IMG/VR virus record: IMGVR_UViG_3300028196_000030 | Coordinates: 1-39,677 of that record | DNA length: 39,677 bases | Source of the DNA: a virus | Strand: one strand, 5' to 3' | Shown here: piece after piece, positions 1-33,983 of the stretch | How the letters are laid out: the number at the start of each line of letters is the position of its first letter | How positions within the stretch are numbered: position 1 is the stretch's first letter | The notes under the pieces: model-generated | The model's input: the letters and a program-made list of their open reading frames with translations, nothing else | Database searches by the model: none | Told to the model about the DNA's origin: nothing | Made by a program: the position numbers and the translations under genes

Positions 1-1149
1 ATAAAAGAAATTGCACTATTTTCAGCAGGTGTAGCTACAACTAATGCTTACACAACTCCTGCGGCAGCTATTCAAGGTGGCAAAAACATTCTTAATGTTC
101 GTCGTCTTAATCAATTAGGAACAATGAGCGGCGCACCAAAATCAGTTAAGTTTACACCTGATCCATTAAAGACTCTTACTGACGCAGACGCAGGCGTTCT
201 TTTTGTAATGCAGCTTGCTAATGGTACCGCACCGACTGACGAATTGGACGATGCAGGTACTAATCTAACTGCTTCTTTCCCAGTTGCAGATTCAGTTACA
301 GTAGAAGGCGGAGCAGGTGGTGTTATAACTATTCCTACTTTTGAGTCTAATCTCGGAGCAGCTCCAAGTCCAGTCATTCCAGAAATTGACATTAAAATAG
401 AGTCAATCGCGGTAACAGCAACCACACGTAAGTTAAGAGCTCGTTGGTCTCCAGAACTCGCACAAGATCTTAATGCTTATCACTCAATGGATGCTGAGGT
501 TGAATTGACCCAGATTCTTTCTGAGCAGATTGCATTAGAAATTGATCGTGAGATTCTTAATGATCTTCTTGTTGAAGCAAAAGGTGCAAACTTCTTCTGG
601 TCACGTGCTCCTGGTAAATTCGTTAAGAAAGACACCGGTGTACTTGCTTCCAGTACGCTTGGACCTAATTTCCACGGAACAGTTCGCGAATGGTACGAGA
701 CTCTTGTTGAAACCATTATCGACGTTGCTAACGAAATTCATAGAAAGACTCTTCGCGGAGCAGCTAACTTTATCGTGGTTTCACCTGAAGTTGCAACAAT
801 CTTCGAAGCATCAATTCTTTACAAGCCAAGCATTAAGATCGACGGACAAGGACAAGCATCAACTCCTTTCTCTATTGGAGCTGAAGCTATTGGATCTCTT
901 TCTAACAGATTTACTGTTTACAAAGATCCTTACTTCCCACGTAACAAGATCCTTGTAGGATACAAAGGTGGATCATACCTTGAGTCTGGATACGTCTATG
1001 CTCCTTATGTACCACTTATCGTTACTCCTACCATCTTCGCTCCAGAGGATTTCACACCAAGAAAAGGTGTAATGACTCGTTACGGAAAGAAAATGGTTCG
1101 AGCTGACTTCTACGGAACAGTTACATGTCTTGACATGGACATTATCTAA
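1..1149 (+). CDS. 23: Major capsid protein gp23-like, 5' end outside window
   Basis: The frame is open from base 1 to the TAA at 1149, giving 382 residues. No start is visible, so the N-terminal part, including any prohead cleavage site, lies upstream. The stretch around window residues 141-180 (RKLRARWSPELAQDL, then DAEVELTQILSEQIALEIDRE) matches the characteristic gp23 region of T4, where a basic segment is followed by ELAQDL, DAE-E-L and EI-LEI-RE. T4 gp23 is 521 residues, so roughly a quarter is missing. It forms the hexamers of the head shell. Codon choice differs from the tail genes: Leu is often CTT and Arg often CGT or CGC rather than TTA and AGA, as expected for the most abundant virion protein. 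A strong terminator follows 22 bases after the stop. Confidence 0.93.
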   Translation: MKEIALFSAGVATTNAYTTPAAAIQGGKNILNVRRLNQLGTMSGAPKSVKFTPDPLKTLTDADAGVLFVMQLANGTAPTDELDDAGTNLTASFPVADSVTVEGGAGGVITIPTFESNLGAAPSPVIPEIDIKIESIAVTATTRKLRARWSPELAQDLNAYHSMDAEVELTQILSEQIALEIDREILNDLLVEAKGANFFWSRAPGKFVKKDTGVLASSTLGPNFHGTVREWYETLVETIIDVANEIHRKTLRGAANFIVVSPEVATIFEASILYKPSIKIDGQGQASTPFSIGAEAIGSLSNRFTVYKDPYFPRNKILVGYKGGSYLESGYVYAPYVPLIVTPTIFAPEDFTPRKGVMTRYGKKMVRADFYGTVTCLDMDII

Positions 1150-1216: not shown

Positions 1217-1567
1217 ATGAAAAAAATAACAAGAAAACAGCTTAGAAGACTAGTTATGGAAGCATTGGAACCGGATGCTATGGAAAAACCTGAAGAGAAT
1301 ATGGGAGACGATGATCGCGCTGCGATACAGCTAGAAAAAGATTTTACAATAGAGGAATTAGGTAACACAATAAACATTGGCTTAAATAACCAAGGTTATA
1401 AGAATGGACCGGTAGCATATTTTCATTATAAAAGCGGTAAAGTATATCTTAACTTTGGTAAAGGTCAGTATAAAGAAGTGATTCTCAAATCAGTACCAAA
1501 CAAGCAAGGTATTCCAGAAATGACAGTAGGCAAAGAATTTCGTATTGCAGGTGATCGCCCCAATTAG
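1217..1567 (+). CDS. Tagged small protein 1 (putative internal head protein)
   Basis: This encodes 116 residues. The ATG at 1217 was chosen because it places the signature MKKITRKQLRRLVMEAL at the extreme N terminus, as in seven other proteins of this block; the ribosome site is weak (GGA at 1207-1209). The tag is a basic amphipathic helix ending in VME-A, which resembles a T4 prohead protease site ([L/I]-x-E before A, G or S). Residues about 18-35 are acidic. The remainder looks like a small beta-rich domain with alternating hydrophobic and charged residues (around VAYFHYKSGKVYLNFGKGQY), for which I recognise no family. It sits directly behind the capsid terminator and would be made at a reduced level. 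Packaging in the head is inferred from the tag. Confidence 0.8.
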   Translation: MKKITRKQLRRLVMEALEPDAMEKPEENMGDDDRAAIQLEKDFTIEELGNTINIGLNNQGYKNGPVAYFHYKSGKVYLNFGKGQYKEVILKSVPNKQGIPEMTVGKEFRIAGDRPN

Positions 1568-1594
1568 ATAGTTGTTTTAAATTTGATAAAACAA

Positions 1595-1624
1595 TTGTAT
1601 ACATATGTTAAAATTTTGTATAAT
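1595..1624 (+). promoter_or_regulatory. Sigma70-like promoter for the 62-residue gene
   Basis: TTGTAT (1595-1600) and a perfect TATAAT (1619-1624) are separated by 18 bases. The start of transcription would be near 1631, where a 7-bp hairpin (ATGTATC / GATACAT, 1629-1647, loop ATTTA) begins. That hairpin would cap the 5' end of the transcript and could stabilise it. Host polymerase recognition is inferred from the consensus only. Confidence 0.6.
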
Positions 1625-1669
1625 CACCATGTATCATTTAGATACATTAACACACACACGGAGAAAACC

Positions 1670-1858
1670 ATGGCTAATAATCCATATGAATTGCGTCAAA
1701 CGCTATTAGAACAAGCACAAAGAATCTTAACAGACCAATATCATTCTGATCATCAAAGATGTCGAGATAAAGGCATTGCTTGTGAAGTAAAGTTTCCAAC
1801 AACAGAAGATATTATCGCAGAAGCTGAAAAACTTTATGCATTTATTCAGAAAAAATAA
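1670..1858 (+). CDS. Small conserved phage protein, unknown function
   Basis: This encodes 62 residues beginning MANNPYELRQTLLEQAQRIL. The ATG at 1670 has GGAGA at 1660-1664, and its own promoter and 5' hairpin lie upstream, so it is preferred over an in-frame start at 1583 that overlaps the promoter. The protein is predicted to be almost all helical: an N-terminal helix, a charged middle (H, R, K, D and one Cys), then PTTEDIIAEAEKLYAFIQ. I recall similar short proteins with this two-helix pattern from T4-like marine phages, always hypothetical. It does not carry the MKITR-type tag of its neighbours. No function can be assigned. Confidence 0.75.
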   Translation: MANNPYELRQTLLEQAQRILTDQYHSDHQRCRDKGIACEVKFPTTEDIIAEAEKLYAFIQKK

Positions 1859-1880
1859 ATAAATAACTTTATTTAATTAT

Positions 1881-1928
1881 AACATACTTATTTTTAACAG
1901 TTAAGTTAGAGGTAAGTATGTTTTTTTT
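1881..1928 (+). promoter_or_regulatory. Hairpin covering the start codon of the next gene, with T tract
   Basis: AACATACTTA (1881-1890) is perfectly complementary to TAAGTATGTT (1913-1922), and eight T residues follow at 1921-1928. The 3' arm contains the ATG at 1918, so RNA reading through from upstream would both tend to terminate and hide the start codon. A weak -10-like TATAAC overlaps the outer 5' arm (1878-1883); RNA started there would lack most of that arm. Confidence 0.5.
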
Positions 1929-2514
1929 ATTGTTTTTGTTTAGTTTGTTAGCACAAGGAGGAGAATCTGGTGTTTTAGTTGATATGGAATTAACCGTCAC
2001 AGGTAACCAAGGCAACATTATATTTGTCAATACACCTCGTGTTAGCGCAAACAATGATTTATATCAATCAACAGAATTACAGTTTTTAATTACTACATAT
2101 GCAGTTTTACATAGAACAACTTTTACACCAGATAACTATAAAATTAGCAACGTGTATAATAAAGACACAGCTAAAATATACGATGAAGACTGCAACTGGG
2201 AAACAGATTCACAAAAATGTGCTATAGAAAATGGAATGCACATAATAGATTCACAAGTAATTATTAATCCTGTCAGAGCCTACATTTCAATGACACTGTA
2301 TAGTTCTGAAATGATTGCAATTAGTGGCGCAACAGTTTCTAATAAACATCAAAGACAAGTAATACAGCTAACACAACAAAAGCAATCGCAAGGTTTGTTA
2401 GGTAGTGTAAAGACCACAGAACAACAAAAGCCGGAAATATTTAGTATTGAGCCTTATGTTTATAATAAAGATTTTCGACAAGCCATTATGCTTTTGTATA
2501 TGTCTATTAAATAA
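1918..2514 (+). CDS. Exported or membrane-anchored protein of unknown function
   Basis: This encodes 198 residues. The ATG at 1918 follows GAGGT at 1910-1914, spaced three bases. Residues 1-13 (MFFLLFLFSLLAQ) form an uncharged hydrophobic segment followed by GGESG, which could be a signal peptide or anchor, though it lacks the usual N-terminal Lys or Arg. The rest looks like a beta-rich soluble domain with many Asn, Thr and Gln. Two Cys (in DCNWETDSQKC) are spaced to form a disulfide, which would fit an extracytoplasmic location. I recognise no lysozyme, holin or spanin motif. The first codons are part of a T tract belonging to a hairpin. The 3' end overlaps the convergent minus-strand gene by eight bases. 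Confidence 0.7.
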   Translation: MFFLLFLFSLLAQGGESGVLVDMELTVTGNQGNIIFVNTPRVSANNDLYQSTELQFLITTYAVLHRTTFTPDNYKISNVYNKDTAKIYDEDCNWETDSQKCAIENGMHIIDSQVIINPVRAYISMTLYSSEMIAISGATVSNKHQRQVIQLTQQKQSQGLLGSVKTTEQQKPEIFSIEPYVYNKDFRQAIMLLYMSIK

Positions 2515-2854
2515 AATCTTTCCACGCGTGTGGTTTTCTTGTTTTAAGATACTTGAGGTTTTTGTCATTTTCATACGCTTCTTTTTCAAAAGGAATCGCA
2601 TAGTAAGCATCTCGACCGGTATTTCCCATAGCAACTGCCTTCAGCCAATACCATACATAAAGAATATAAAATCCTACCACCCAGAGTTCTCTCTGTTGAA
2701 CAAGGTGAATCTTTTCATGATTATATATAGTAACCGGTAGCGGTTCTTTTGAAATAATAAACGGGTATAGCGTAATCGCATAAACATCAATAAAGACACT
2801 CATTAATTTACAAAATCTTGGGCTAATGATTATTTTAGGCTTAAATTCTTTCAT
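2507..2854 (-). CDS. Small HExxH-like putative metal-dependent membrane protein
   Basis: This is the only convincing minus-strand gene in the window, with 115 residues. On the minus strand AAGGAG (2870-2865) lies ten bases before the ATG at 2854; a TTG at 2863 is too close to it. The core carries NHEKIHLVQQREL, an H-E-x-x-H zinc-peptidase-like motif, followed by a hydrophobic aromatic segment (VVGFYILYVWYWL) and a conserved-looking C terminus with GRDAYYAIPFEKEAYEND and a KTRK-H-W tail. A downstream E in PFEKEAY could be a third metal ligand. I recall similar short HE-IH proteins in marine phages and Bacteroidetes, without known function. It lies convergent to the exported protein gene and divergent from the coiled-coil gene. 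Peptidase activity is inferred from the motif only. Confidence 0.75.
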   Translation of the reverse strand: MKEFKPKIIISPRFCKLMSVFIDVYAITLYPFIISKEPLPVTIYNHEKIHLVQQRELWVVGFYILYVWYWLKAVAMGNTGRDAYYAIPFEKEAYENDKNLKYLKTRKPHAWKDFI

Positions 2855-2888
2855 GTTGTTCAATCTCCTTTATAATTTTCTTATGTTA

Positions 2889-2897
2889 TGGTATAAT
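2889..2897 (+). promoter_or_regulatory. Extended -10 promoter
   Basis: TGGTATAAT fits the extended -10 pattern TGnTATAAT, with no recognisable -35. It lies in the divergent space between the minus-strand gene and the coiled-coil gene, 40 bases before the start at 2937. Confidence 0.5.
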
Positions 2898-2936
2898 TAT
2901 ACTTATTCACGGCTATTTTAACATAAGGAGAATATT

Positions 2937-3146
2937 ATGCCTATAAAGAAAGAAGAAGTACATGATTGTAAAAAAGATTGTGAATTGTTGCACAAAGAGA
3001 TCGCAGATCTAAAAAAAGAAGTCGCAGCTCTTAAAGCAGAACTTAAAAAAGCACCAAAAGGTGGTGGAGGAGCAGATCCAAGAGTTGAGCTACTAATTGA
3101 TTTATTAGAAAGTAAAAGAATTATTAGAAAAAAAGAATTAAACTAA
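2937..3146 (+). CDS. Short coiled-coil protein
   Basis: This encodes 69 residues; the ATG follows AAGGAG by six bases. Residues about 8-40 form a heptad-patterned Lys/Glu/Leu coiled coil (CELLHKEIADLKKEVAALKA). A Gly-rich hinge (PKGGGGADP) and a C-terminal helix ending in Lys/Arg residues follow. Two Cys lie at the start of the coil. The layout of coiled coil, Gly hinge and helix suggests a small oligomer or a linker. It has no MKITR-type tag. Similar short proteins are, from memory, common and unassigned in marine T4-like phages. Confidence 0.75.
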   Translation: MPIKKEEVHDCKKDCELLHKEIADLKKEVAALKAELKKAPKGGGGADPRVELLIDLLESKRIIRKKELN

Positions 3147-3162
3147 ATAATTAGCAATAGGC

Positions 3163-3202
3163 CCGACACAAGCATAATAAGCTGATCTCGCCAGCGTGTC
3201 GG
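3163..3202 (+). other. Structured 5' leader of the next gene
   Basis: CCGACAC (3163-3169) pairs perfectly with GTGTCGG (3196-3202). Inside, GCTG (3181-3184) pairs with CAGC (3192-3195), so the inner helix stacks directly on the outer one, leaving an 11-base bulge on the 5' side. No T tract follows, so it is not a terminator. It is GC-rich against its surroundings and ends 17 bases before a very strong ribosome site. Confidence 0.55.
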
Positions 3203-3230
3203 AATCTTGCGAACAACAAAGGAGGATATT

Positions 3231-3731
3231 ATGCCAAAAATTGTAAGAGATGATACTAAAGGACTTTATCAAAAAGCCGGAAAAGGAGGCGTTGGGGTTA
3301 AGATAGTTCAGGTTGCTGAATTAACAAAGACAGCAGCTCGAGTTTACTCTATAGCTAGTGGTAATGGAATAGTACAACCAGAAAAATCAATATTAACAGG
3401 AGTAACTGTTGTTGTAAGTACAGCACTTGCATATTCAGGTGCTGCAACAACCGGTATAAGAATAGGTACAGCAGCAGCTGGTGAACAACTTATGGCACTA
3501 GATGCAGATTCGGTCGCCGGCTCTGGTGCTTCATTGGCAGCAGGAAAAGGTACTTCTACACAATCAGAAGTTGCAACTGCACTTGGTGGTAACGCTACCG
3601 CTATAATTGTAGCAAATTCACCATATACAGCAACTGAAAGAAAACTTTTTCCGGAAGTTGCTATACATGCTAATGCTGTTAATTCAGGTGTATTACAAGT
3701 CTTTTTAGAGTTTGTACAGTTCAGTGCTTAA
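3231..3731 (+). CDS. Putative virion decoration or head-associated protein
   Basis: This encodes 166 residues. The ATG at 3231 is preferred over an in-frame TTG at 3207 because a near-perfect AAGGAGG ends just before it. The sequence is low in charge and rich in Ala, Gly, Ser, Thr and Val, with repeated short beta strands (GVTVVVSTALAYSG, TGIRIGTAAAGEQL, VLQVFLEFVQFSA). This composition is typical of phage head decoration or fibre-like beta-sandwich proteins and unlike a cytoplasmic enzyme. The structured leader, strong ribosome site and strong terminator all point to high expression. I do not recognise a named T4 homologue; a T4 hoc/soc-like role is only an inference from composition and position in the head block. 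Confidence 0.72.
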   Translation: MPKIVRDDTKGLYQKAGKGGVGVKIVQVAELTKTAARVYSIASGNGIVQPEKSILTGVTVVVSTALAYSGAATTGIRIGTAAAGEQLMALDADSVAGSGASLAAGKGTSTQSEVATALGGNATAIIVANSPYTATERKLFPEVAIHANAVNSGVLQVFLEFVQFSA

Positions 3732-3758
3732 TTTTAATTTAGGCATTTAAGCTTTATT

Positions 3759-3787
3759 AAAGACACTCATCTCGGGTGTCTTTTTTT
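3759..3787 (+). terminator. Intrinsic terminator
   Basis: AAAGACAC (3759-3766) pairs with GTGTCTTT (3776-3783), extended inward by a T-G and a C-G pair, around the loop ATCTC. The uninterrupted T run covers 3781-3787. It closes the putative virion protein gene; no promoter is evident before the next gene. Confidence 0.88.
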
Positions 3788-3877
3788 ATGTTTGCAAGAA
3801 ACTACTGTTTAGTTTGTGTGATACTTTGATGTGTAAGCTAATAGTTATTAAGGAACATTAATTTGGAGTTAATAGCG

Positions 3878-4180
3878 ATGTCAAAGTTAAACAGAAAACA
3901 AGTAAGAAAAATGCTTTTAAAAGAATTTAAAATGATGGGAATGGCGCCTATGGGAGCATCAATGATTGGTCATTCACCTTTTCCAAGCGCACAACCTGAC
4001 CATGGTTATGATGATCATCATGGTGAAGAAATGATTCAAGTGCAGCATGGCGGACATAAAGGTGGCGTTTCAAAAGAAGATTGCTGCAAAGCAGTTCTTT
4101 GTCTTATTGAATGTTGTGATTGTCCTGAAACTAAGTCATTACTTCGAGAATGCTGCGAAGATATTCTTTCTCGTTGTTAA
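3878..4180 (+). CDS. Tagged small protein 2: His-rich and Cys-rich
   Basis: This encodes 100 residues. The start at 3878 is chosen because it gives MSKLNRKQVRKMLLKEFK, matching the tag of the neighbouring genes (R at position 6, L/V at 9, R at 10, then LLKE); a TTG at 3863 in frame has a better-spaced AAGGA and remains possible. After the tag comes a Met/Gly/Pro segment, then a His-rich stretch (HGYDDHHGEE and HGGHKGG). A C-terminal helix has about nine Cys in CC, C, CC-C, CC and C positions (KEDCCKAVLCLIECCDC, then LLRECCEDILSRC). The Cys repeat pattern resembles a four-helix metal or copper-storage type helix, but no family is confirmed. It begins the run of closely packed tagged genes. Confidence 0.72.
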   Translation: MSKLNRKQVRKMLLKEFKMMGMAPMGASMIGHSPFPSAQPDHGYDDHHGEEMIQVQHGGHKGGVSKEDCCKAVLCLIECCDCPETKSLLRECCEDILSRC

Positions 4181-4189
4181 TATTATAAA

Positions 4190-4579
4190 ATGTATCTATC
4201 ACGTAATAGTCTTCGATCATTAATTTTAGAGTCAGTATATCAAACTTTAAATGAAAGTGATCCAAAAGTAGGCACAGGTAAAAAGCCAAAAGGTTCCGGA
4301 AGAAGACTATATACAGACGAAAATCCTAAAGATACAGTTCGTGTTAAGTTTAGTTCAGCAAGCGCAATACGTCAAACATTGACAAAAAATAGTTTTAAGT
4401 CTAAAAGTCACAAGCGTCAGTCTCAAATAATCAATCTTATACATCAAAGGGTTCGCGCTGCATATAAAAATGCAAAAGACCCAAAGGTTAAAAAACGTTT
4501 AAAGCGTGCGTATGAATATGCAAAAAAACGAAAAGAAGCTAGTAAAAAGAAAACTCAAAGAATGAGGAAGAAAAAATGA
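4190..4579 (+). CDS. Tagged small protein 3: basic, probable nucleic-acid binder
   Basis: This encodes 129 residues. The N-terminal tag is MYLSRNSLRSLILESV, with ILE-S as a plausible protease site. The body is very basic: GKKPKGSGRRLYTDENPKDTV, then a helical region (SHKRQSQIINLIHQRVRAAY and a KKRLKRAYEYAKKRKEASKK tail). The GSGRRLYTDENPKDTV block followed by Lys-rich helices recalls a small basic family seen in environmental phages and giant viruses (I believe DUF5872; low certainty). Such a protein could condense or travel with packaged DNA. No good ribosome site precedes it, and it starts nine bases after the previous stop. The last codons overlap the next gene as ATGA. Confidence 0.8.
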   Translation: MYLSRNSLRSLILESVYQTLNESDPKVGTGKKPKGSGRRLYTDENPKDTVRVKFSSASAIRQTLTKNSFKSKSHKRQSQIINLIHQRVRAAYKNAKDPKVKKRLKRAYEYAKKRKEASKKKTQRMRKKK

Positions 4580-4872
4580 AACTAACAAGACACTTACTTA
4601 GACAGCTTATTATTGAAGCAATCGAACCAAAAGAAGTCAAAATAAAAGATATAGAAAAAGCAGTTCGTAAATGTCTTGAAAAAGAAGGTGGAGCAGCAGG
4701 TATGGGTCTTTTGGTTAAATGTGTTAAGGCACTTCAGACCAAAACTAAAAAATTACCAAAACATTGTAAATCAAACAAACAGATTGCAAAATGTATCTTA
4801 AAAATGGATTTTGTTGTTAAACATCGTTATGAAGATATTATTTTAACTGTGGGTTTACCTAAGAGGAAATAA
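4576..4872 (+). CDS. Tagged small protein 4: basic helical protein
   Basis: This encodes 98 residues beginning MKLTRHLLRQLIIEAIE, one of the clearest tags, with IIE-A as a textbook-like prohead protease site. The mature part would be a basic, mostly helical protein with four Cys (KCLEKEGG, VKCVKAL, HCKSN, KCILKM) and a C-terminal beta-like segment (YEDIILTVGL). I recognise no family. It overlaps its upstream neighbour as ATGA and its downstream neighbour as TAATG, so translational coupling is likely. Confidence 0.8.
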   Translation: MKLTRHLLRQLIIEAIEPKEVKIKDIEKAVRKCLEKEGGAAGMGLLVKCVKALQTKTKKLPKHCKSNKQIAKCILKMDFVVKHRYEDIILTVGLPKRK

Positions 4873-5249
4873 TGAAGATAACAAGAGCATTTTTAAGAAA
4901 TTTACTAAAAGAAGCAAAAGGTGACAAATCTTGTAAGCGAGCTACGCAAGACAGCAAGTTTAATAGTTCACAAAAAATGAAAGCAGCAAAAAGTAAAAAA
5001 ATTGCTTACGGTGAACCTAATAGACCTGAATTAAAAAAATTAGTAAAAGAAAATAAACTTTGTGGAAATTGCGGTGCTTTTGATGTTACAAAAAAAATGC
5101 AATCTTGTATGAAAGTCAAATACCCAAAAAATGTAAGTGCTGACTTTTTAATTAAAGGCAAAAAGAAAGGATACTGCTTAATGCACGATTTTATGTGTTC
5201 AGGACATAAAACTTGTTTAACTTGGGGTTCGGGCGGACCAAAAAAATGA
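4872..5249 (+). CDS. Tagged small protein 5: four-Cys metal or Fe-S-like protein
   Basis: This encodes 125 residues beginning MKITRAFLRNLLKEAK, with LKE-A as the possible cleavage site. After a Lys-rich linker, residues about 64-121 hold CGNCGAFDVTKKMQSC, then GYCLMHDFMCSGHKTCLTW and a GSGGPKK end. The C-x2-C-x11-C arrangement followed by G-Y-C resembles high-potential iron-sulfur (HiPIP) proteins, and I recall close look-alikes in many marine phages. A zinc ribbon is the alternative because there are six Cys and two His. It starts within the TAA of the previous gene and overlaps the next as ATGA. A redox or metal protein carrying a head-targeting tag would be unusual. Confidence 0.78.
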   Translation: MKITRAFLRNLLKEAKGDKSCKRATQDSKFNSSQKMKAAKSKKIAYGEPNRPELKKLVKENKLCGNCGAFDVTKKMQSCMKVKYPKNVSADFLIKGKKKGYCLMHDFMCSGHKTCLTWGSGGPKK

Positions 5250-5587
5250 AATTAACTAGGCAAAAATTAAGATCACTTATTCTTGAAATAGTTTTGCAAG
5301 AAAAAAGAAAGCGCAAAAAGAAAAAGGTCGATTATAAAAAAGCCTATAAAAAATATCATAGTTCGAAAAAAGCTAAAAAGCAACGTGCCCAGAGGAATAG
5401 AATTGGCAGGTTATTAAAAAAGCACGGCATTAAAGTCCCAAAAGGTCATGAAATTGATCACATAACCCCTATTAGCAGGGGTGGTGGAAACAATATTAGC
5501 AATATTAGAATTATTCCACGAGGAAAAAATAGAGCTTTAGGTCAAAAAATAACTACTAATAAAAGAAAAAAGAACGGAACTTATTAA
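5246..5587 (+). CDS. Tagged small protein 6: HNH endonuclease
   Basis: This encodes 113 residues. The tag is MKLTRQKLRSLILEIV. A very basic segment follows (RKRKKKKVDYKKAYKKYHSS and KKAKKQRAQRNR), then an HNH core around residues 70-100: HEIDHITPISRGG supplies the D-H of the first strand, NNISNIRIIP the central Asn, and RGKNRALG the C-terminal part where the last His is replaced by Asn (an HNN-type variant). HNH enzymes cut DNA with one metal ion. The basic region probably binds DNA. It starts as ATGA overlap with the previous gene. A free-standing phage HNH is usually a homing-type nuclease or packaging helper; the tag suggests it may instead be carried in the head and injected. Confidence 0.85.
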   Translation: MKLTRQKLRSLILEIVLQEKRKRKKKKVDYKKAYKKYHSSKKAKKQRAQRNRIGRLLKKHGIKVPKGHEIDHITPISRGGGNNISNIRIIPRGKNRALGQKITTNKRKKNGTY

Positions 5588-5588
5588 A

Positions 5589-6131
5589 ATGAAAATTACA
5601 AGAAAAAAACTAAGAAAATTAATTCAAGAAGAATTAAAAAGATTATCATACGTTAGTAAAGAACAAGGTCATACATATGGTATAGAACATTTACCTGACC
5701 GGTATGACCAGAAAAAAGCAGATGATATAATAGGACACACCTGACTGACTCATGTTCGGAAGAAGGGTTCTTCCTTAAATGAAGTTGGATATGTTCTTTG
5801 GCATTCCTTAAATGAAAGTGGTCATGTTGCAGTTTATGATGTTGAATGGCCGGACGGAACAATTGAAAGAAATATACCTGCGCGTCTTTTAGAAAAAGTA
5901 AAAGATAACAATGATAATGTTGACGAACATGATGAACATGGTATTGTTGGTCATGAAGAAGACTCGTTATTAGGTGAAAGAAAATATAAAAAAAGAAAAA
6001 GCAAAAAAAAGAAGAAGAAAGCATCAAAGAAAAAGCCTAAGTATTGGTATCTAGGTGGTTACGGGATAGATCATGACCATGATTATGCCGACTTTGGTGG
6101 AGACTTTGGTGGAGACGGAGGTGGAGAATGA
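5589..6131 (+). CDS. Tagged small protein 7, interrupted by an in-frame UGA
   Basis: The ATG at 5589 gives MKITRKKLRKLIQEELKRL and then 51 residues to a TGA at 5742-5744. The same frame stays open after the TGA to another TGA at 6129-6131. The downstream part is clearly protein-like (VGYVLWHSLNESGHVAVYDV, DGTIERNIPARLLE, a Lys-rich stretch, then a Gly/Asp/His C terminus). The final codons overlap the next gene's ATG as ATGA, as in intact neighbours. The sequence around the stop (GHT-stop-LTHVRKK) suggests that TGA stands where a Trp codon (TGG) would fit. No ATG, GTG or TTG with a ribosome site restarts the second half. Options are recent nonsense mutation, sequence error, or read-through in the leaky context TGA-CTG. 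TGA is a normal stop elsewhere here. Confidence 0.7.
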
Positions 6132-6829
6132 AAATAACAAGAAGCGATCTTAGTATACTAATTGAAAGTTATTTAAATGAAGAAGGAACAGACTCTAAAG
6201 GTGAAACTGTTGATGATGCATTATCTAATGAACTAGAGCAAACACAAGTTGGTGATTCATTTATGTCAAATCAAATGATGCGACATGGAGAAAAAAAGCC
6301 AATGGGTGCCGAAAAACATGCACAAGCTATCACAGATTTTCGAAAAGGAAGTGATAGAGGACAATTTCCTCCATTAACATTCGGTCCCGGGGTTGATGAT
6401 GAAGGTAATTTAATGCCAGGTAAGTTTACAACAGTTCATGATTACCACGAGCCAGACCCGTATGATCAAGGTGCTGTCAGAAGATATAAAAAACAGCATT
6501 ATTTAGGTCCGGATGAGAAAAGTGTTGATGATCCTGAAATTACTAGGATTGGCTTGGAAGATGATGAAGATACTGAAGAGTCCCCTTATGGTACACAGTA
6601 TAATTTAGACAATACAGATCCTCAATTTAGAATGCAAGATAAGACTGCCGTGGATGACGGATTTACCGCACATTCGGGTGATGATTTTTATTTAGAAGAT
6701 AAAGATGATGAAGATTATGAAGAATCAGAAGAATATACAGAAGAAGATACTCTTTACGATATTGATGATGACAGCGAAGAAGAAGGTTTAATTGCTAAAA
6801 TTAGAAATTATTTTTCTAGAAATAAGTAA
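6128..6829 (+). CDS. Tagged small protein 8: very acidic protein
   Basis: This encodes 233 residues beginning MKITRSDLSILIESYLNEE, with LIE-S as the possible protease site. The rest is low-complexity and strongly acidic, especially from residue about 130 (DDEDTEE, DDFYLEDKDDEDYEE, YDIDDDSEEE), with scattered Tyr and His, and ends in a short basic amphipathic helix (LIAKIRNYFSRNK). Acidic internal proteins of this kind resemble head scaffold or core components, or DNA mimics that occupy DNA-binding proteins of the host. Neither role can be settled from sequence. It is the last tagged gene of the block, overlapping the previous one as ATGA, and is followed by a promoter-like element. Confidence 0.8.
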   Translation: MKITRSDLSILIESYLNEEGTDSKGETVDDALSNELEQTQVGDSFMSNQMMRHGEKKPMGAEKHAQAITDFRKGSDRGQFPPLTFGPGVDDEGNLMPGKFTTVHDYHEPDPYDQGAVRRYKKQHYLGPDEKSVDDPEITRIGLEDDEDTEESPYGTQYNLDNTDPQFRMQDKTAVDDGFTAHSGDDFYLEDKDDEDYEESEEYTEEDTLYDIDDDSEEEGLIAKIRNYFSRNK

Positions 6830-6913: not shown

Positions 6914-8071
6914 ATGGCTACATTTTCACAGACTTCTAAACCTACACCTTTTGGTATATACGATGAAGAATCAGTTTTTCAAACAGATGCTGATAGTATG
7001 GTTACTTTTGTTAAAAGAAAGTTAGGTGACGATATTCTCTCTGTTGAATTAACACAAAAACAAATTTTTGGAAATTTTGAAGAATCGACACTAGAATATA
7101 GTTCAATTCTTAATCAGTATCAGGCTAAATCTCAACTGGTCAATTACTTAGGTTTTCCCACAGGAAGTGCTTTAAGCGGTAGTGAAAATAGATATCCGCG
7201 AGAAAACTTAGAGTATTTGACACGGTTCGCCGAACCTTACGCAATGGAGGCTGGAATCGGTGGTTCATATAATTTTGCAAGTGGAACAATCAGCCTCGAG
7301 CTTGGCCGCCAGGACTATGATCTTTATACAGAGTTAAAAGATGAAAATGGTATTGCTATTTTTAATAGCACAAAAGGTAAACTTAAAATAGCTGAGGTAT
7401 TCCATTATAACCCGCAAGCTGCTTATAGATTTTTTGATACAACATCTGCTATCAATTATCTTAATAATGAATTTAGTTTTGAATCTTTTACTCCGGAGAC
7501 TATTTTTTACGTGTTACCTGTGTTTGAAGATATCTTGCGAGCAGGTCAGCTTGATCTTTCAAATAGAGTTCGTAGGTCAAATTATTCTTACAAAGTAGTT
7601 GGTACAAAAATTAGAATTTATCCTATTCCGTCAAATGATAATAAAAAACTATGGATTAAAGTAAGACAATACCCTGACCCTAATTCTCCTGCTTATGAAG
7701 ATGCATCTATTACAGGAGTTTCAAACTTAAGTAATATTCCTTTTGGTAATATTCCTTACAAACAAATTAATTCAATTGGCAAACAGTGGATTAGACAATA
7801 CACAATTGCCATATCTATGGAACAGCTAGGATACATTAGAGGTAAATTTGGAAATGTTCCAATTCCGGGAGGTGAAGTAAGTTTAAATTCTGGGGACATG
7901 ATTAGTAACGGAAGGTCAGACAAAGAATCATTAGTTACTAAACTTAAAGAAATGTTAGATACAATGACATATGATAAATTAGTTGAGTTGCAAGCAACAA
8001 GAGCAGAACAAATTAATAAACAACTTAAATTCGTACCCGTACCTAACGGGAAATGCGTATACTTAGGTTAG
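6914..8071 (+). CDS. 13: Neck protein, gp13-like
   Basis: This encodes 385 residues; the ATG follows CGAGGT. The C-terminal third (SIGKQWIRQYTIAISMEQLG, then IRGKFGNVPIPGGEVSLN and a helix with LVTKLKEMLDTM) matches what I remember of gp13-type head-completion proteins of T4-like marine phages, where a Trp/Arg helix precedes G-K-F/Y-x-x-(I/V)-P-(I/V)-PGG and a coiled helix. T4 gp13 is 309 residues, so this is longer, with extra N-terminal sequence. gp13 joins gp14 at the head vertex to seal the packaged head and attach the tail. The order of this gene, the next two, sheath and tube follows the T4 order 13-14-15-18-19, which supports the name. Confidence 0.68.
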   Translation: MATFSQTSKPTPFGIYDEESVFQTDADSMVTFVKRKLGDDILSVELTQKQIFGNFEESTLEYSSILNQYQAKSQLVNYLGFPTGSALSGSENRYPRENLEYLTRFAEPYAMEAGIGGSYNFASGTISLELGRQDYDLYTELKDENGIAIFNSTKGKLKIAEVFHYNPQAAYRFFDTTSAINYLNNEFSFESFTPETIFYVLPVFEDILRAGQLDLSNRVRRSNYSYKVVGTKIRIYPIPSNDNKKLWIKVRQYPDPNSPAYEDASITGVSNLSNIPFGNIPYKQINSIGKQWIRQYTIAISMEQLGYIRGKFGNVPIPGGEVSLNSGDMISNGRSDKESLVTKLKEMLDTMTYDKLVELQATRAEQINKQLKFVPVPNGKCVYLG

Positions 8072-10012: not shown

Positions 10013-13000
10013 ATGGCTGAACAAACATTTAAATCACCAGGTTTTTTTGAAAGAGAAATAGATGTATCTCAGAGAGGTGCTTCTAAATCATTCAACGTTC
10101 CTGGTGGCATCATAGGAATATCAGAATCAGGGCCTGCTTTTGTTCCTACAACAGTTACATCAATTCAAGAGTTTGAAAATGTTTTTGGTAATATTAGACC
10201 TGAACATTTTGGCGCAATAGCAGCAAATGAATTTTTAAAAAGACGACCGGCAATTACTTTTGTCAGAACATTAGGTGCAGGAGTTATACAACAAAGTGGC
10301 GATCTAAATAATTTTAAGAATTACGGAACAGTATCTGGCGCAGGATTTTCTTTAAGCGGCTCTGAAGCGTCTGCAGCGCAGCAAGCAGGTGCAGCTGATA
10401 AAAGACATCAAGGCTGCGTCCAATTTATTGCTGCAAAACATGAAATAAATGAAAATGAATCACATTTATATCCATTTGTATCACAAAATCAATCAGTTGG
10501 TACTTCAACTTCTTATTTCATAAGAGGTATGGTTTTTTTAGCATCAGGTGCTAAAATGGAAATATTAGATCATGACAGTGGGTATAATTTAACAGGATCA
10601 GCTACAGATGAAGCACGAATAAGTAGTTATACCGGACCGATAAAAAAACAAGGTATTTTTAAAATAGTAATTTCATCATCTTTAGGTTCCACTTTTTCAA
10701 ATGATGAATCAGAAGCAGGAATTAAAATATATACTGCATCTTTAAATCCAGATTCTGATTACTATATTAACAAGGTTTTAAACACCAATTATCAAAAATT
10801 TGATGATAGACAACATTTACTATATTCTGATTTTGTTATTGAAAATGATTTAGCCAAAGTCGAATATAGTGCAGGAACACCAACAGTTGCTGTATTGTCA
10901 GGAACAGCAGGTTCTTCGACATCTGGAGACACTACCAAACATTACAGAGAACTATTCGGATCTTTTAATACGAGATACGCAAACGCAAAAACAACAAAGT
11001 TTATTTCGCAGCCCTTTGGAAATAAAGAGCACGACCTATTTCATTTTGAAACTTTGTCTGATGGCGAAAAATCAAATAAATTATTTTCTATTTCGATTGC
11101 TAATTTAAAAAAATCAACGAGCAATAAAAACCCATACGGAACTTTTACAGTTCAAGTTAGAAAATATAACGACAACGATGATCAACCAGTTATTTATGAA
11201 CAGTTTAATAATTGTAATTTAAATCCTAACAGTGAAGATTTTGTTGGTAGTTTAATTGGTGATGCAAAAAAATATTATAATTTTAACACAGTTTTAGAAT
11301 CTGAACGCAGTTTATTAACAGCAGGAACGTATCCTAATAAATCTAAATACATAAGAATAGTAATTAATCAAAGTGTATTAGATAAAAAAATACCAGCTGA
11401 CTGTTTACCATTTGGTTTTAAAGGTCTACCGTTAATTAAGACTTCTAATACACTCACTTCAACTGCAACTTCTATTCCAGGTGGAGAAAACACAATAAGA
11501 TTACATGCGTCAGGCACTCAATCTTCAAACTTTGCATATTCTATTTTACCACCTGTTCCTTTGACTTACAAAGTAACACAAGGCAATGGTAACGTAAATC
11601 CTAATTTTGCAGGCCACGCCAGTCAAGATGAAAACGTCAATCCTTCAATTTATTGGGGAATTCAATCTGGCAGGTTAAGAAAAAATAAAAATTATGATGA
11701 AAATGGAACATCTAATCCATTACTTCAAACAAACAACAGGATACAAAATGAATCATCATTAATCGATGGTTATTCTAAGTTTTTAGGAATTCAAAAACTT
11801 GATGCACTATTAAGCGGTTCAGGTGCTGATGCTTTTAACAATAACAAGTTTACTCTTGCAAGAGTGGCTTTAAATAATCAATCAGCTTCGACAGACAGTT
11901 TGTTAGGCGCAATTTCAAGAGAACTCACAGGTTCTGCAGATGATCATATGGTGAGTGCTGCTTATATCAGGAGCGCTTCTTTGGATCTTCCGAATATGAC
12001 AATTAACGATGGGGTTGCAAATCCAAGAAGATTAACTCTCGCATCTTTATTATCAGGCGATGCCAATACATTTAATAAATTTTCTAAATATGCTAAGTTT
12101 ACTAATATATTTTTTGGAGGTTTCGATGGTTTAAATATATTAGATAAAGACTCCAGGTTAATGAATGACAAAGCTTCTTCTTTAGAAGTCGGTGGAAAAG
12201 CAGCTGGAGGCGTTATTAGTTATCAAAACTTGCATGCAGGTGCTTCTCCTGGGGTAGGAACAAGAAACAATATTGTGTCTTCTTATTTAGAAGCTGCTAA
12301 TATTTTAACTTTAGAGGGTTTAACTAACATTAACATATTAATAGTTCCCGGGATTAAAGAGCCTTTAGTTACAAATAAGATTAGTGATAAAGTAAGAGAT
12401 AATTCAAAAATATTATATTTGATGGATATTCCTGCTTATGATAAAAATTCTAATCGTTTGTTTGAAGATTCAACAGTAAAAATTAATGTTAATAAAACAG
12501 TAGATAAATTCGCTGGAAGAAGTATTGATAACAGCTATGTTGCATCGTATTTCCCAGACACTTATATCAACACAGATGCAGTTGGCAAAATAACAAAAGT
12601 ACCTGCTTCGGTATCTGCATTTCAAGCTTTAGGATATAATGACAGTGTTAGTTTTCCATGGTTCGCTCCCGCAGGATTTAATCGCGGTGCATTAAGTAAC
12701 GTTGTAAATACAGTCTGCAAATTAAATACTGCAGATAGAGACAATCTTTATGAGGCAAGAATTAATCCAATTGCACAATTTGCGACAGGTAAAATCGTAA
12801 TATTTGGACAAAAAACTCTTCAGATGGATAAATCAGCATTAGATCGTGTTAATGTTAGAAGAATGGTTTTAGAAGTAAAAAGAATTGTTTCACGGATAGC
12901 AGGTGATTTTGTTTTTGAACAAAATACACAAATACTTAAAAATAGATTTATTTCTCAAGTAACACCTAAATTAGCATTAGTTCAATCTGAAAAAGGTATT

Positions 13001-16641: not shown

Positions 16642-17130
16642 ATGGCAGAAACACTTAGCGTAACTGATATGCTGCCCAATAGATTTGAACCAAAAAGACA
16701 ACATCGATGGGTATTAGCACTTGAAGGAATCGATTCTTTTTTAATTAAAGGAACAGCTCGACCAACATTTACTATTGGATCAACAAAAATTGATTTTATC
16801 AATAGCTATCGATATGTAGCCGGCAAATTAGATATGGGTAATATTAATATAACACTTCACGATCCAATTGCACCTTCCGGTGCACAACAAGTAATGGAAT
16901 GGATTAGAACACATTATGAGTCTGTTTCTGGTAGAGCAGGTTATGCTGATTTTTACAAGAGAGATCTTCAACTTAAGTTATTAGATCCTGTGGGCACTGT
17001 TATTGAGCTTTGGGACATTAAAGGAGCATTTATAACAAGTTCAGGATTTGGTACTTTAGACTATGGGTCTGATGGATTGATGGAAATTAGCTTAACATTA
17101 CAATTTGATAATTGTGTTTTACAATATTAA
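16642..17130 (+). CDS. 19: Tail tube protein gp19
   Basis: This encodes 162 residues, against 163 in T4 gp19. AGGAGA lies six bases before the ATG. Motifs fit the tube family: an N-terminal arm (VTDMLPNRFEPKRQHRWVLA), a central GKLDMGNINITLHDPIAPSG strand and loop, a helix (QQVMEWIRTHYE), and C-terminal strands (YGSDGLMEISLTLQFDNCVL). Subunits stack as hexameric rings inside the sheath and form the DNA channel. It is the third gene of a tight sheath-sheath-tube run and is closed by a strong terminator, in keeping with very high expression. Confidence 0.95.
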   Translation: MAETLSVTDMLPNRFEPKRQHRWVLALEGIDSFLIKGTARPTFTIGSTKIDFINSYRYVAGKLDMGNINITLHDPIAPSGAQQVMEWIRTHYESVSGRAGYADFYKRDLQLKLLDPVGTVIELWDIKGAFITSSGFGTLDYGSDGLMEISLTLQFDNCVLQY

Positions 17131-31874: not shown

Positions 31875-33983
31875 ATGCAAGCAATTATATTAGAAACCAA
31901 AATAAACAGTTTGATTAGAGAATCAGTCTTATTAAACGTAAGAGAAATTGAATTTAAACAAGTTTTAAAAGAAGTATATCCTTATTTTAAGCATGCAATA
32001 GATGAGGAAAATGCCAAGCTAAGAAAATATATGCTATCCGAAGGATATATTAGTCATTATGAGTATATGCTTAGTGAACAAAAGCAGTTAGAAGAAGGCT
32101 GGTTAGATGTCATGGCTGACGTAGGTATCACAGCCGGTCAAATGGTAGGTGGTTTTGTAGGTCAAGCAGCTGGTTTAGCAGGTGTTGTTAAATACACAAA
32201 AGATTTTATTGGTGTTGTTGATAAAGCTTTCTTAGAAATGGTAGGTCCGCTTTTAGGATTATTCTTTTCAATGCAAGCATTACTTTTTCCTATGCCGGCT
32301 GTAGGCACAATCAAAGGTATTCTTTTAGGTTTTTTCAAAGGCGTTGGCAACGTAATTAGTGGAGCTGGAGGACTTCTTGCAAGAGGAGTAACTGCCTTAC
32401 TTAGTAGGGGTCATGGATTTATCGGAAAGGCTATTGAAGTCTTAGGTAAAGCTCTGAAGGGAATAACCGCAGCGATTAAGGCTGGTGGTCCAACTATTAC
32501 TAAAATTGAAGGTAAAGTTGGTGGTAGTATGCTTTCCAAAGCAACGAAGGCCATGGGTACTGCTATGGAAAACTTTATGAAACGCCTTGGGATCCTTAAA
32601 GAAGGTTTAAAAAGTCTAGGAAAAAAAGATGTAAAAGAAGTTCCGGGTATGGTAAAAGATATTCTTACAAAAGCTTTTCAAACTGGAAAAGATAAATTAG
32701 ATGATGTTGCTAATGCAATGAAACAAACAAAAATTGGAAAAGCTGTCGTAGCAGCTAAAACTAAAGCAGGCGAAGCTGTACATAATGCTTTGAAAGGTAT
32801 GACACTTGGCGCAACTGACGATGTTGCAAAGGTATCATTAAAAGGATTGGTTTCAAAATCTGGTGAAGATTTATCAGGCTTTACAATAAAATCAATCGGT
32901 AAAGGGCGTATGTATATGGAGAAGGTAGATGACGCAGGCAAAATAACGTCAACGCTATATGTTTCAGCAGACACGACTGCTAAAATAATGGCAAAGAGTC
33001 CTGTTGTTAAGAAGTGGGTTGTATCAAACTTAGATGATACAGCAAAAACTGCTTTTAATAAGTCTTTCGGTGCAGCAACTAGTACAACAAAAACAATGAT
33101 GAAAGTAGGAAAAGATTCACTTAACGCTGCTAAAGGTAAGTTTGGAAAAATGATCGGTGATTCTTTTAAGCGAGTAAATGACTGGCTAGCGGAATGGATG
33201 TTTAAAAATCCAAAGAGTTTGGAAAGATTTGTAGGCAAAAAAATGACTTCTGATGCTTCCGGTGTTTCGTATATGTTTTTAGGTGCTAAAAACGGAAAAA
33301 TGGTCATGACAACAAATAAGACAGCTATTACAAGGGCAGAAGCAGCAGTTAAAGCGTCAAAGCAGGTTGGTAGTGATGCAATTAAAAAATCAGTATCTAC
33401 TGGAAAAAATATGGTGAAGACAGCCAGAGAGACATCTAAAGCGCATATTAAAACAGTTAGAGATCAATATGCAAAAAAAATAGCTGCAAAGGAAAAAGGT
33501 TTGGGCAAATTAAAGACAAAACAAGGTAAAGTCAACAGAAGAGAAGAGATCTCGAAGCTGAGGGCTGAAAGAGATAAGCAATTAGCTATATTAAAACAAC
33601 GCCAATCAGATCTAGTATCTGCAGCTAGAAAAGGAAGAGATGCATTTGAAAAGACAGCAAGATCACAAAAAGTTTTAAATGTAGGAAAGACTCAGCAAAA
33701 ACTCTCAAGTGCTAAGGGTGCAAAAGACACTGTTGAAGAATTTATTGTAACACCTGCTCAATTCTTTTCATCTTATGGTCATATGTGGTTCGGAACTGCA
33801 AAAACAGGCATAAAAAAAGCAACTGGGGTTGGAATGCCTGAATTCAACCAGTTTATTATTTATTTGCGTCACATATATCCGCCTAAAGCAGCAGCGGCTG
33901 ACATGATGAGAATTGTAGCAGCTTCCGGAAAGGATTCACGAATGATACCTGGTACGTACGGGCAACTTGAAATGCCTGATTAA
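31875..33983 (+). CDS. Large hydrophobic-helical protein, possible ejected virion protein
   Basis: This encodes 702 residues. The N terminus (MQAIILETKINSLIRESVLL) has IRE-S, loosely like the head tags but less typical. KQLEEGWLDV at 70-79 contains LEE-G, which fits the T4 prohead protease rule. Hydrophobic glycine-rich segments follow at about 83-105 and 122-165, long enough to span a membrane. The rest is Lys/Ala/Thr-rich and mostly helical, with a coiled coil around 510-590 (KEKGLGKLKTKQGKVNRREE). A conserved-looking C terminus has SYGHMWFGTAKTGIKK and FNQFIIYLRHIYPPKAA. I recognise no enzyme domain. The layout of membrane segments plus long helices suggests an internal ejection or pore protein. 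It lies between gp32 and uvsX, controlled by the hairpin just upstream. Confidence 0.7.
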   Translation: MQAIILETKINSLIRESVLLNVREIEFKQVLKEVYPYFKHAIDEENAKLRKYMLSEGYISHYEYMLSEQKQLEEGWLDVMADVGITAGQMVGGFVGQAAGLAGVVKYTKDFIGVVDKAFLEMVGPLLGLFFSMQALLFPMPAVGTIKGILLGFFKGVGNVISGAGGLLARGVTALLSRGHGFIGKAIEVLGKALKGITAAIKAGGPTITKIEGKVGGSMLSKATKAMGTAMENFMKRLGILKEGLKSLGKKDVKEVPGMVKDILTKAFQTGKDKLDDVANAMKQTKIGKAVVAAKTKAGEAVHNALKGMTLGATDDVAKVSLKGLVSKSGEDLSGFTIKSIGKGRMYMEKVDDAGKITSTLYVSADTTAKIMAKSPVVKKWVVSNLDDTAKTAFNKSFGAATSTTKTMMKVGKDSLNAAKGKFGKMIGDSFKRVNDWLAEWMFKNPKSLERFVGKKMTSDASGVSYMFLGAKNGKMVMTTNKTAITRAEAAVKASKQVGSDAIKKSVSTGKNMVKTARETSKAHIKTVRDQYAKKIAAKEKGLGKLKTKQGKVNRREEISKLRAERDKQLAILKQRQSDLVSAARKGRDAFEKTARSQKVLNVGKTQQKLSSAKGAKDTVEEFIVTPAQFFSSYGHMWFGTAKTGIKKATGVGMPEFNQFIIYLRHIYPPKAAAADMMRIVAASGKDSRMIPGTYGQLEMPD

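What the first reader, a model, noticed from the sequence alone, without database searches (positions are those of the whole stretch)
1217..6829. Cassette of eight proteins sharing a candidate capsid-targeting tag
Eight proteins between the capsid gene and the neck genes (starts 1217, 3878, 4190, 4576, 4872, 5246, 5589, 6128) begin with variants of M-K-[IL]-T-R-x-x-L-R-x-L-[IL]-x-E-[ASE], followed by unrelated bodies. T4 internal proteins and Alt carry a short N-terminal capsid-targeting sequence that prohead protease gp21 cuts after [L/I]-x-E. Several tags here end in IIE-A, ILE-S, LKE-A or LIE-S. This predicts an expanded set of head-packaged, injected effectors. I recall MKITR-type N termini on many uncharacterised marine phage proteins, so the tag may be a general marker for injected proteins.
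Basis: partly seen in the sequence, partly recalled or inferred. Interest (0 to 1): 0.85.

Follow-up and report, generated by a model that had tools for sequence, protein, structure and literature searches.

The report
Phage head-loading tag on many proteins
Eight neighbouring proteins of a marine T4-like virus, and up to about 45 in related genomes, share a short front-end tag that looks like an address label for loading them into the virus head, probably for injection into the host; one of them also carries a conserved internal stop codon that is apparently read through.

Summary
Observation confirmed. Eight ORFs between gp23 and gp13 share an N-terminal tag on unrelated bodies. In 14 related marine T4-like contigs the tag (consensus MKITRRQLRRIIREE) opens roughly 240 ORFs against 2-3 in shuffled controls, up to 45 per genome, in runs that are not confined to the gp23-gp13 gap. 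Best reading: a longer version of the T4 capsid-targeting sequence. Spacing phi8-phi11-phi12-x-E14 equals phi4-phi7-phi8-x-E10 of T4 IPII, IPIII, Alt and gp24. The clade's own gp23 propeptide ends [LV]LRE|A/S in 11 of 11. Core proteins between gp21 and gp22 start with tag-like helices. A gp21 protease is present in every tag contig that reaches upstream of gp23. A strict tag pattern has no match in 84,980 bacterial/archaeal genomes. Few tagged bodies match known families; those that do are mostly effector-like (Fic, zeta toxin, SET, peptidoglycan enzymes, nucleases), unlike matched untagged controls. Cleavage and injection are inferred, not shown. Unexpected: the tagged gene at 5589 is not 51 aa. 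Its in-frame UGA is kept in 32 of 32 distinct homologues, followed by a covarying hairpin and a predicted SH3-like barrel in the same frame: probable programmed readthrough, with selenocysteine not excluded.

The parts
1..1149 (+). gp23 major capsid protein, N-terminus and propeptide cut off by the contig end
   Evidence: Pfam Gp23 PF07068 8.5e-64; frame open from base 1
1217..1567 (+). tagged protein MKKITRKQLRRLVMEALEPD..., first gene after gp23; the same slot holds a tagged gene with an unrelated body in G032, G038, G025 and others
3878..4180 (+). tagged His/Cys-rich protein MSKLNRKQVRKMLLKEFKMM...
   Evidence: homologues in G032, G040, G003, G038, G010
4190..4579 (+). tagged Lys-rich protein MYLSRNSLRSLILESVYQTLNES...; body conserved with different front parts in G003, G038, G010
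4576..4872 (+). tagged protein MKLTRHLLRQLIIEAIEPK...
4872..5249 (+). tagged Cys-rich protein MKITRAFLRNLLKEAKGDK...
5246..5587 (+). tagged HNH-endonuclease-like protein MKLTRQKLRSLILEIVLQEK...
   Evidence: Pfam HNH 4.1e-5, above cut-off
5589..6131 (+). tagged recoded gene: tag + linker, in-frame UGA, SH3-like barrel, Lys-rich and Gly-rich tail
5742..5744 (+). conserved in-frame UGA; TGA in 32 of 32 distinct homologous sequences
5758..5774 (+). RNA hairpin GGAAGAA-GGG-UUCUUCC, 7 bp, 13 nt after the UGA, compensatory changes
   Evidence: synonymous constraint
5751..5897 (+). predicted five-stranded SH3-like barrel, wholly downstream of the UGA
   Evidence: AlphaFold2 pLDDT about 70-80 there; weak Foldseek SH3/KOW-like matches
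6128..6829 (+). tagged acidic protein MKITRSDLSILIESYLNEEG...
6914..8071 (+). neck gene (gp13 position), right boundary of the cassette
   Evidence: PHROG head-tail adaptor 5e-8

Best explanation
The tag is a capsid (core)-targeting sequence. It folds as a short amphipathic helix that docks the cargo on the scaffolding core during prohead assembly. The gp21-type prohead protease then probably cuts after the conserved Glu ([LI]-[IL]-x-E|A/S/E), or at a second [LI]-x-E a few residues on, leaving the cargo free in the mature head, from where it is probably ejected with the DNA. Gene bodies are exchanged behind a constant tag. Shown here: the tag, its spacing, its clustering, the genomes it occurs in, the co-occurring protease and the matching gp23 motif. 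Inferred: core docking, cleavage, injection. Within the set, gene 5589 most likely makes two forms, a short one ending at the UGA and a longer one with an SH3-like barrel made by UGA readthrough.
For: About 240 tagged starts in 14 related contigs plus the window vs 2-3 in shuffled controls. [LI]-x-E with Glu at residue 14 in 152/204 distinct tags; positions outside the profile also peak (Glu 18, 19, 21, 22: 33, 23, 15, 22 vs background 2). gp23 propeptides end [LV]LRE-A/S in 11/11. T4 IPII/IPIII MKTYQEFIAEA, Alt MELITELFDED and gp24 MAKINELLRES share the phi-x-x-phi-phi-x-E spacing; mutational work on the IPIII CTS places targeting at residues 4 and 7 and processing at 8 and 10 (PMC9026906). 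The protein after gp21 starts MAKLSRNDLKGIVKECLIEIL-like and fits the tag profile at 12 bits or more in 6 contigs; the next small one also fits. gp21 is in 11 of the 13 contigs with gp23; the other two are cut at gp23; no contig among 30 lacking gp21 has an S78 protease. Strict tag: 0 matches in 84,980 cellular genomes. 148 tagged proteins hit only 16 Pfam families, including Fic, zeta toxin, SET, TseH-like, L,D-transpeptidase, lysozyme, LysM; 148 length-matched untagged ones hit 116, mostly metabolic, glycan and DNA families. Tagged genes run adjacent far more often than chance in 8 of 10 contigs.
Against: No virion proteome or cleavage data. Window and relatives are linear fragments, and the window lacks the gp21 region. 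Bodies are mostly acidic (mean net charge -0.052 per residue vs -0.020 in controls), unlike basic T4 internal proteins. 3878 (LLKE|F) and 5246 (LILE|I) have atypical P1' residues. One tagged body resembles a 5'-3' deoxyribonucleotidase, not an obvious injected effector. The contigs were selected for having the tag.
Confidence: 0.72

Rival explanations
1. The tag targets proteins to the head core, but the tagged proteins are structural or assembly factors that stay in the particle or are degraded rather than injected effectors.
For: Core-gene proteins beside gp21 have tag-like starts; most bodies have no family.
Against: Bodies vary widely between relatives at the same locus and include Fic, zeta, SET and cell-wall enzymes, which fits cargo better than assembly.
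Confidence: 0.14
2. The tag is a docking helix for something outside the head, such as a host complex, a phage compartment or the tail; the [LI]xE pattern follows from a Glu-rich amphipathic helix.
For: Tagged genes also lie far from head genes; a Glu-rich helix gives [LI]xE easily.
Against: The spacing matches the T4 CTS and the motif matches this clade's own gp23 site; neighbours of gp21 share it.
Confidence: 0.1
3. The tag is mainly a DNA-level module (recombination anchor or translation leader), not a protein signal.
For: Tags within a genome share synonymous codons more than codon usage predicts (0.52-0.63 vs 0.38-0.47).
Against: The amino-acid pattern is kept between genomes with varied codons; no T4 late-promoter motif is enriched upstream.
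Confidence: 0.04
4. For gene 5589: the UGA is decoded as selenocysteine, with the downstream hairpin acting as a bacterial SECIS.
For: UGA only; hairpin with GGG/GGA loop 20 nt downstream, roughly compatible with bacterial SECIS geometry (from memory); synonymous constraint around the hairpin.
Against: No Cys or other sense codon among 32 distinct sequences; no redox motif next to the site; no Rfam match; host unknown.
Confidence: 0.15

Closest known systems
Capsid-targeting sequence (CTS) of phage T4 internal proteins (IPII, IPIII) with gp21 cleavage after L/I-x-E
   Same: N-terminal, short, phi-x-x-phi-phi-x-E spacing, [LI]-x-E before a small or acidic residue, many unrelated cargoes, T4-like phage with a gp21 protease
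   Different: about 4 residues longer with conserved K-I-T-R start; up to about 45 tagged ORFs per genome instead of a handful; arrays in several places; mostly acidic bodies
Head ejection proteins of giant phages phiKZ and SPN3US
   Same: many head-packaged proteins processed after x-x-E by a gp21-related protease; paralogues sharing an identical N-terminus (PMC5694885)
   Different: their propeptides are mostly long (>100 residues) and their motif is S/A-x-E; here a uniform short tag
C-terminal domain addition by recoding in phages (frameshift-made Ig-like extensions; UGA readthrough of the Qbeta coat gene, the latter from memory)
   Same: two forms of one protein, the longer with an extra beta domain (PMC5009743)
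   Different: in-frame UGA with a covarying hairpin, in a tailed DNA phage, on a head-tagged protein

Membership tests
T4-type capsid-targeting sequence | short N-terminal sequence shared by otherwise unrelated proteins | tested here: met
T4-type capsid-targeting sequence | hydrophobic positions -6, -3, -2 relative to the P1 Glu (L/I-x-E) | tested here: met
T4-type capsid-targeting sequence | encoded in a phage with a gp21-type protease and gp23-type capsid | tested here: met
   by relatives, since the window lacks that region
T4-type capsid-targeting sequence | targets cargo into the prohead | not testable with these tools
   needs virion proteomics or tag fusions
T4-type capsid-targeting sequence | removed by the protease | not testable with these tools
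   needs N-terminal peptide mapping
T4 internal proteins (IPI-III) | small basic proteins | tested here: not met
   tagged bodies mostly acidic; only 1% have net charge above +0.08 per residue
Programmed stop-codon readthrough | stop codon conserved with coding constraint in the same frame on both sides | tested here: met
   TGA in 32/32; third codon positions vary most on both sides (0.586 and 0.551)
Programmed stop-codon readthrough | cis-acting RNA structure downstream | tested here: met
   196/196 pair cells formed in 28 distinct sequences, with compensatory changes; synonymous suppression codons +4 to +14
Programmed stop-codon readthrough | stop codon not reassigned genome-wide | tested here: met
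   TGA ends 13-31 of the genes of 150 aa or more in each of five relatives
Programmed stop-codon readthrough | longer product made in cells | not testable with these tools
   needs a reporter or mass spectrometry
Bacterial selenoprotein | Cys homologues or redox context at the UGA | tested here: not met
   sequence context GHT-UGA-LTHV
Bacterial selenoprotein | host with SelA/SelB/SelC | not tested
   host unknown

The most novel reading that the evidence does not exclude
A clade of uncultured marine T4-like phages uses one short head-import tag to load dozens of exchangeable effectors (Fic, zeta-like, SET, cell-wall enzymes) per virion, and regulates one tagged head protein by hairpin-stimulated UGA recoding that adds an SH3-like domain to a fraction of copies.
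Probability: 0.5. Interest if true: 0.85.

Novelty: new variant of a known kind. Interest (0 to 1): 0.74.

Why it matters
If right, the tag lets anyone list the likely injected proteins of these phages from sequence alone, turning up to about 45 unknown genes per genome into testable effectors, and offers a compact address label for loading proteins into phage heads. The conserved UGA with a covarying hairpin would be a clear case of programmed stop-codon recoding in a tailed DNA phage.

Tried and rejected
T4-type late promoter TATAAATA upstream of tags: absent, 0% vs 1% in controls. T4-IP-like W[RK]xF[LI]xE class as a major second tag: only 12 hits vs 1 shuffled, most weak. Genome-wide TGA reassignment: rejected, TGA ends many genes. 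Downstream reinitiation as the source of the barrel: not supported, no conserved in-frame start after the UGA and the out-of-frame ATG reads only short, unconserved peptides. Suppressor tRNA: none in the window or four relatives scanned. Known RNA family at the UGA: none. Sense-codon homologues: none, although one peptide pattern used did not require TGA. Same element elsewhere in these genomes: none convincing; next best E 0.065. Outer stem next to the UGA: only 83% of cells paired and no double changes, so not claimed. Matches in cellular genomes or isolated phages: none. Literature for the tag or for such readthrough: nothing found.

Full report
What is there. The window is a 39,677-base linear IMG/VR fragment of a T4-like phage. 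It begins inside gp23, has a neck/adaptor protein at 6914, a sheath at 10013 and a tail tube at 16642, and a UvsX-like protein further on.

More than chance. A profile trained on the tags of 14 related contigs plus the window finds 245 starts at 8 bits or more, against 3 in shuffled N-termini out of 44,239 candidates. A first scan of viral contigs found 62 stretches. Per-contig counts at 8 bits include 45 (G025), 33 (G010), 33 (G004), 27 (G031), 26 (G038) and 20 (G003). Tagged genes sit in runs. The contigs were found by their tags, so these counts do not measure how common the tag is among phages. In isolates a consensus search finds one record, the huge uncultured phage LR756508; T4, a Flavobacterium phage and a Microcystis phage have none by pattern. 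The strict tag has no match in 84,980 bacterial and archaeal genomes.

Why a capsid-targeting sequence. (1) Spacing: T4 IPII and IPIII (MKTYQEFIAEA), Alt (MELITELFDED) and gp24 (MAKINELLRES) all have hydrophobic residues at 4, 7, 8 and Glu at 10; the tag has them at 8, 11, 12 and 14. A review reports that IPIII targeting depends mainly on residues 4 and 7 and processing on 8 and 10, that gp21 cuts after L/I-x-E, and that 10 residues suffice to carry foreign proteins into the head (PMC9026906; PMC9958956). (2) The clade's own gp23 propeptide ends in [LV]LRE followed by A or S in 11 of 11 contigs. (3) The protein encoded right after gp21 begins like the tag (MAKLSRNDLKGIVKECLIEIL), and so does a second small protein in that interval. 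(4) gp21 is found in 11 of 13 contigs that have gp23; the other two are cut at gp23; the 30 contigs without gp21 have no S78-type protease. (5) Beyond the profile, extra [LI]-x-E sites appear around residues 18-22 well above background. The tag itself is predicted as a helix in the one structure computed (residues 5-20).

What the cargo is. Of 148 tagged proteins, hits to Pfam cover only 16 families, among them Fic (with HPFxxGNGR intact), zeta toxin, SET, TseH-like, L,D-transpeptidase, lysozyme and LysM; PHROGs adds endolysins, endonuclease VII, polynucleotide kinase and a deoxyribonucleotidase. Length-matched untagged proteins from the same contigs hit 116 families, largely sugar, nucleotide and DNA metabolism. 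In the window one tagged body is HNH-like. These family names are annotation, not tested function. Tagged bodies are more acidic than controls, so they are not simply T4-style basic internal proteins.

The recoded gene. ORF 5589 looks like 51 aa because of a TGA at 5742-5744. The frame continues to 6128 and relatives keep the same TGA with conserved protein on both sides. Of 32 distinct sequences with this motif all have TGA; for the 36 loci TGA was part of the search pattern, but the 28 relatives were found with peptide patterns, one of which does not include the site, and all the distinct sequences extracted from them also have TGA. Third-position variation is high before the stop and after the hairpin but suppressed at codons +4 to +14, where a 7-bp hairpin is formed in every sequence with compensatory changes. 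TGA is an ordinary stop elsewhere in these genomes. The barrel predicted downstream lies entirely after the UGA; its fold matches are weak SH3/KOW-like ones. Readthrough is the most economical reading; selenocysteine is not excluded. This is inference from sequence; no protein was seen.

Bottom line. The interpretation as an expanded CTS system is well supported by independent sequence tests but unproven at the steps of targeting, cleavage and injection.

Noticed in passing
window 5742-5774 and homologues in L182-L240: Conserved in-frame UGA with a covarying hairpin inside a tagged gene (see report).
   Followed up: yes
G003:117285-117652 (L107), G038:151825-152161 (L098), G010:36680-37040 (L111): Phage-encoded tmRNA genes, in G038 and G010 inside arrays of tagged genes.
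   Followed up: no
window 31875-33983: 702-aa Gly-rich protein starting MQAIILETKINSLIRESV (LIRE-S) without family matches; perhaps an ejection-type protein. The nearby slot before uvsX in G032 holds a 161-aa tagged gene.
   Followed up: partly
G032:81041-81964 minus, G003:22389-23315 minus: Proteins in the gp23-gp13 gap beginning MNNMKQILTEWRKF[IL]NER, closer to the T4 IP-type CTS (YQEFIAE) than to the tag.
   Followed up: partly
L113:8327-10051 minus: 575-aa tagged protein with YHGSRTPP, which resembles an ADP-ribosyltransferase motif; no Pfam hit.
   Followed up: partly
G031:139350-142938: Two gp23 copies side by side.
   Followed up: no
L241:2916-4300 (LR756508.1): Tag-like starts in a 484-kb uncultured huge phage about 11 kb from its gp23.
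   Followed up: partly
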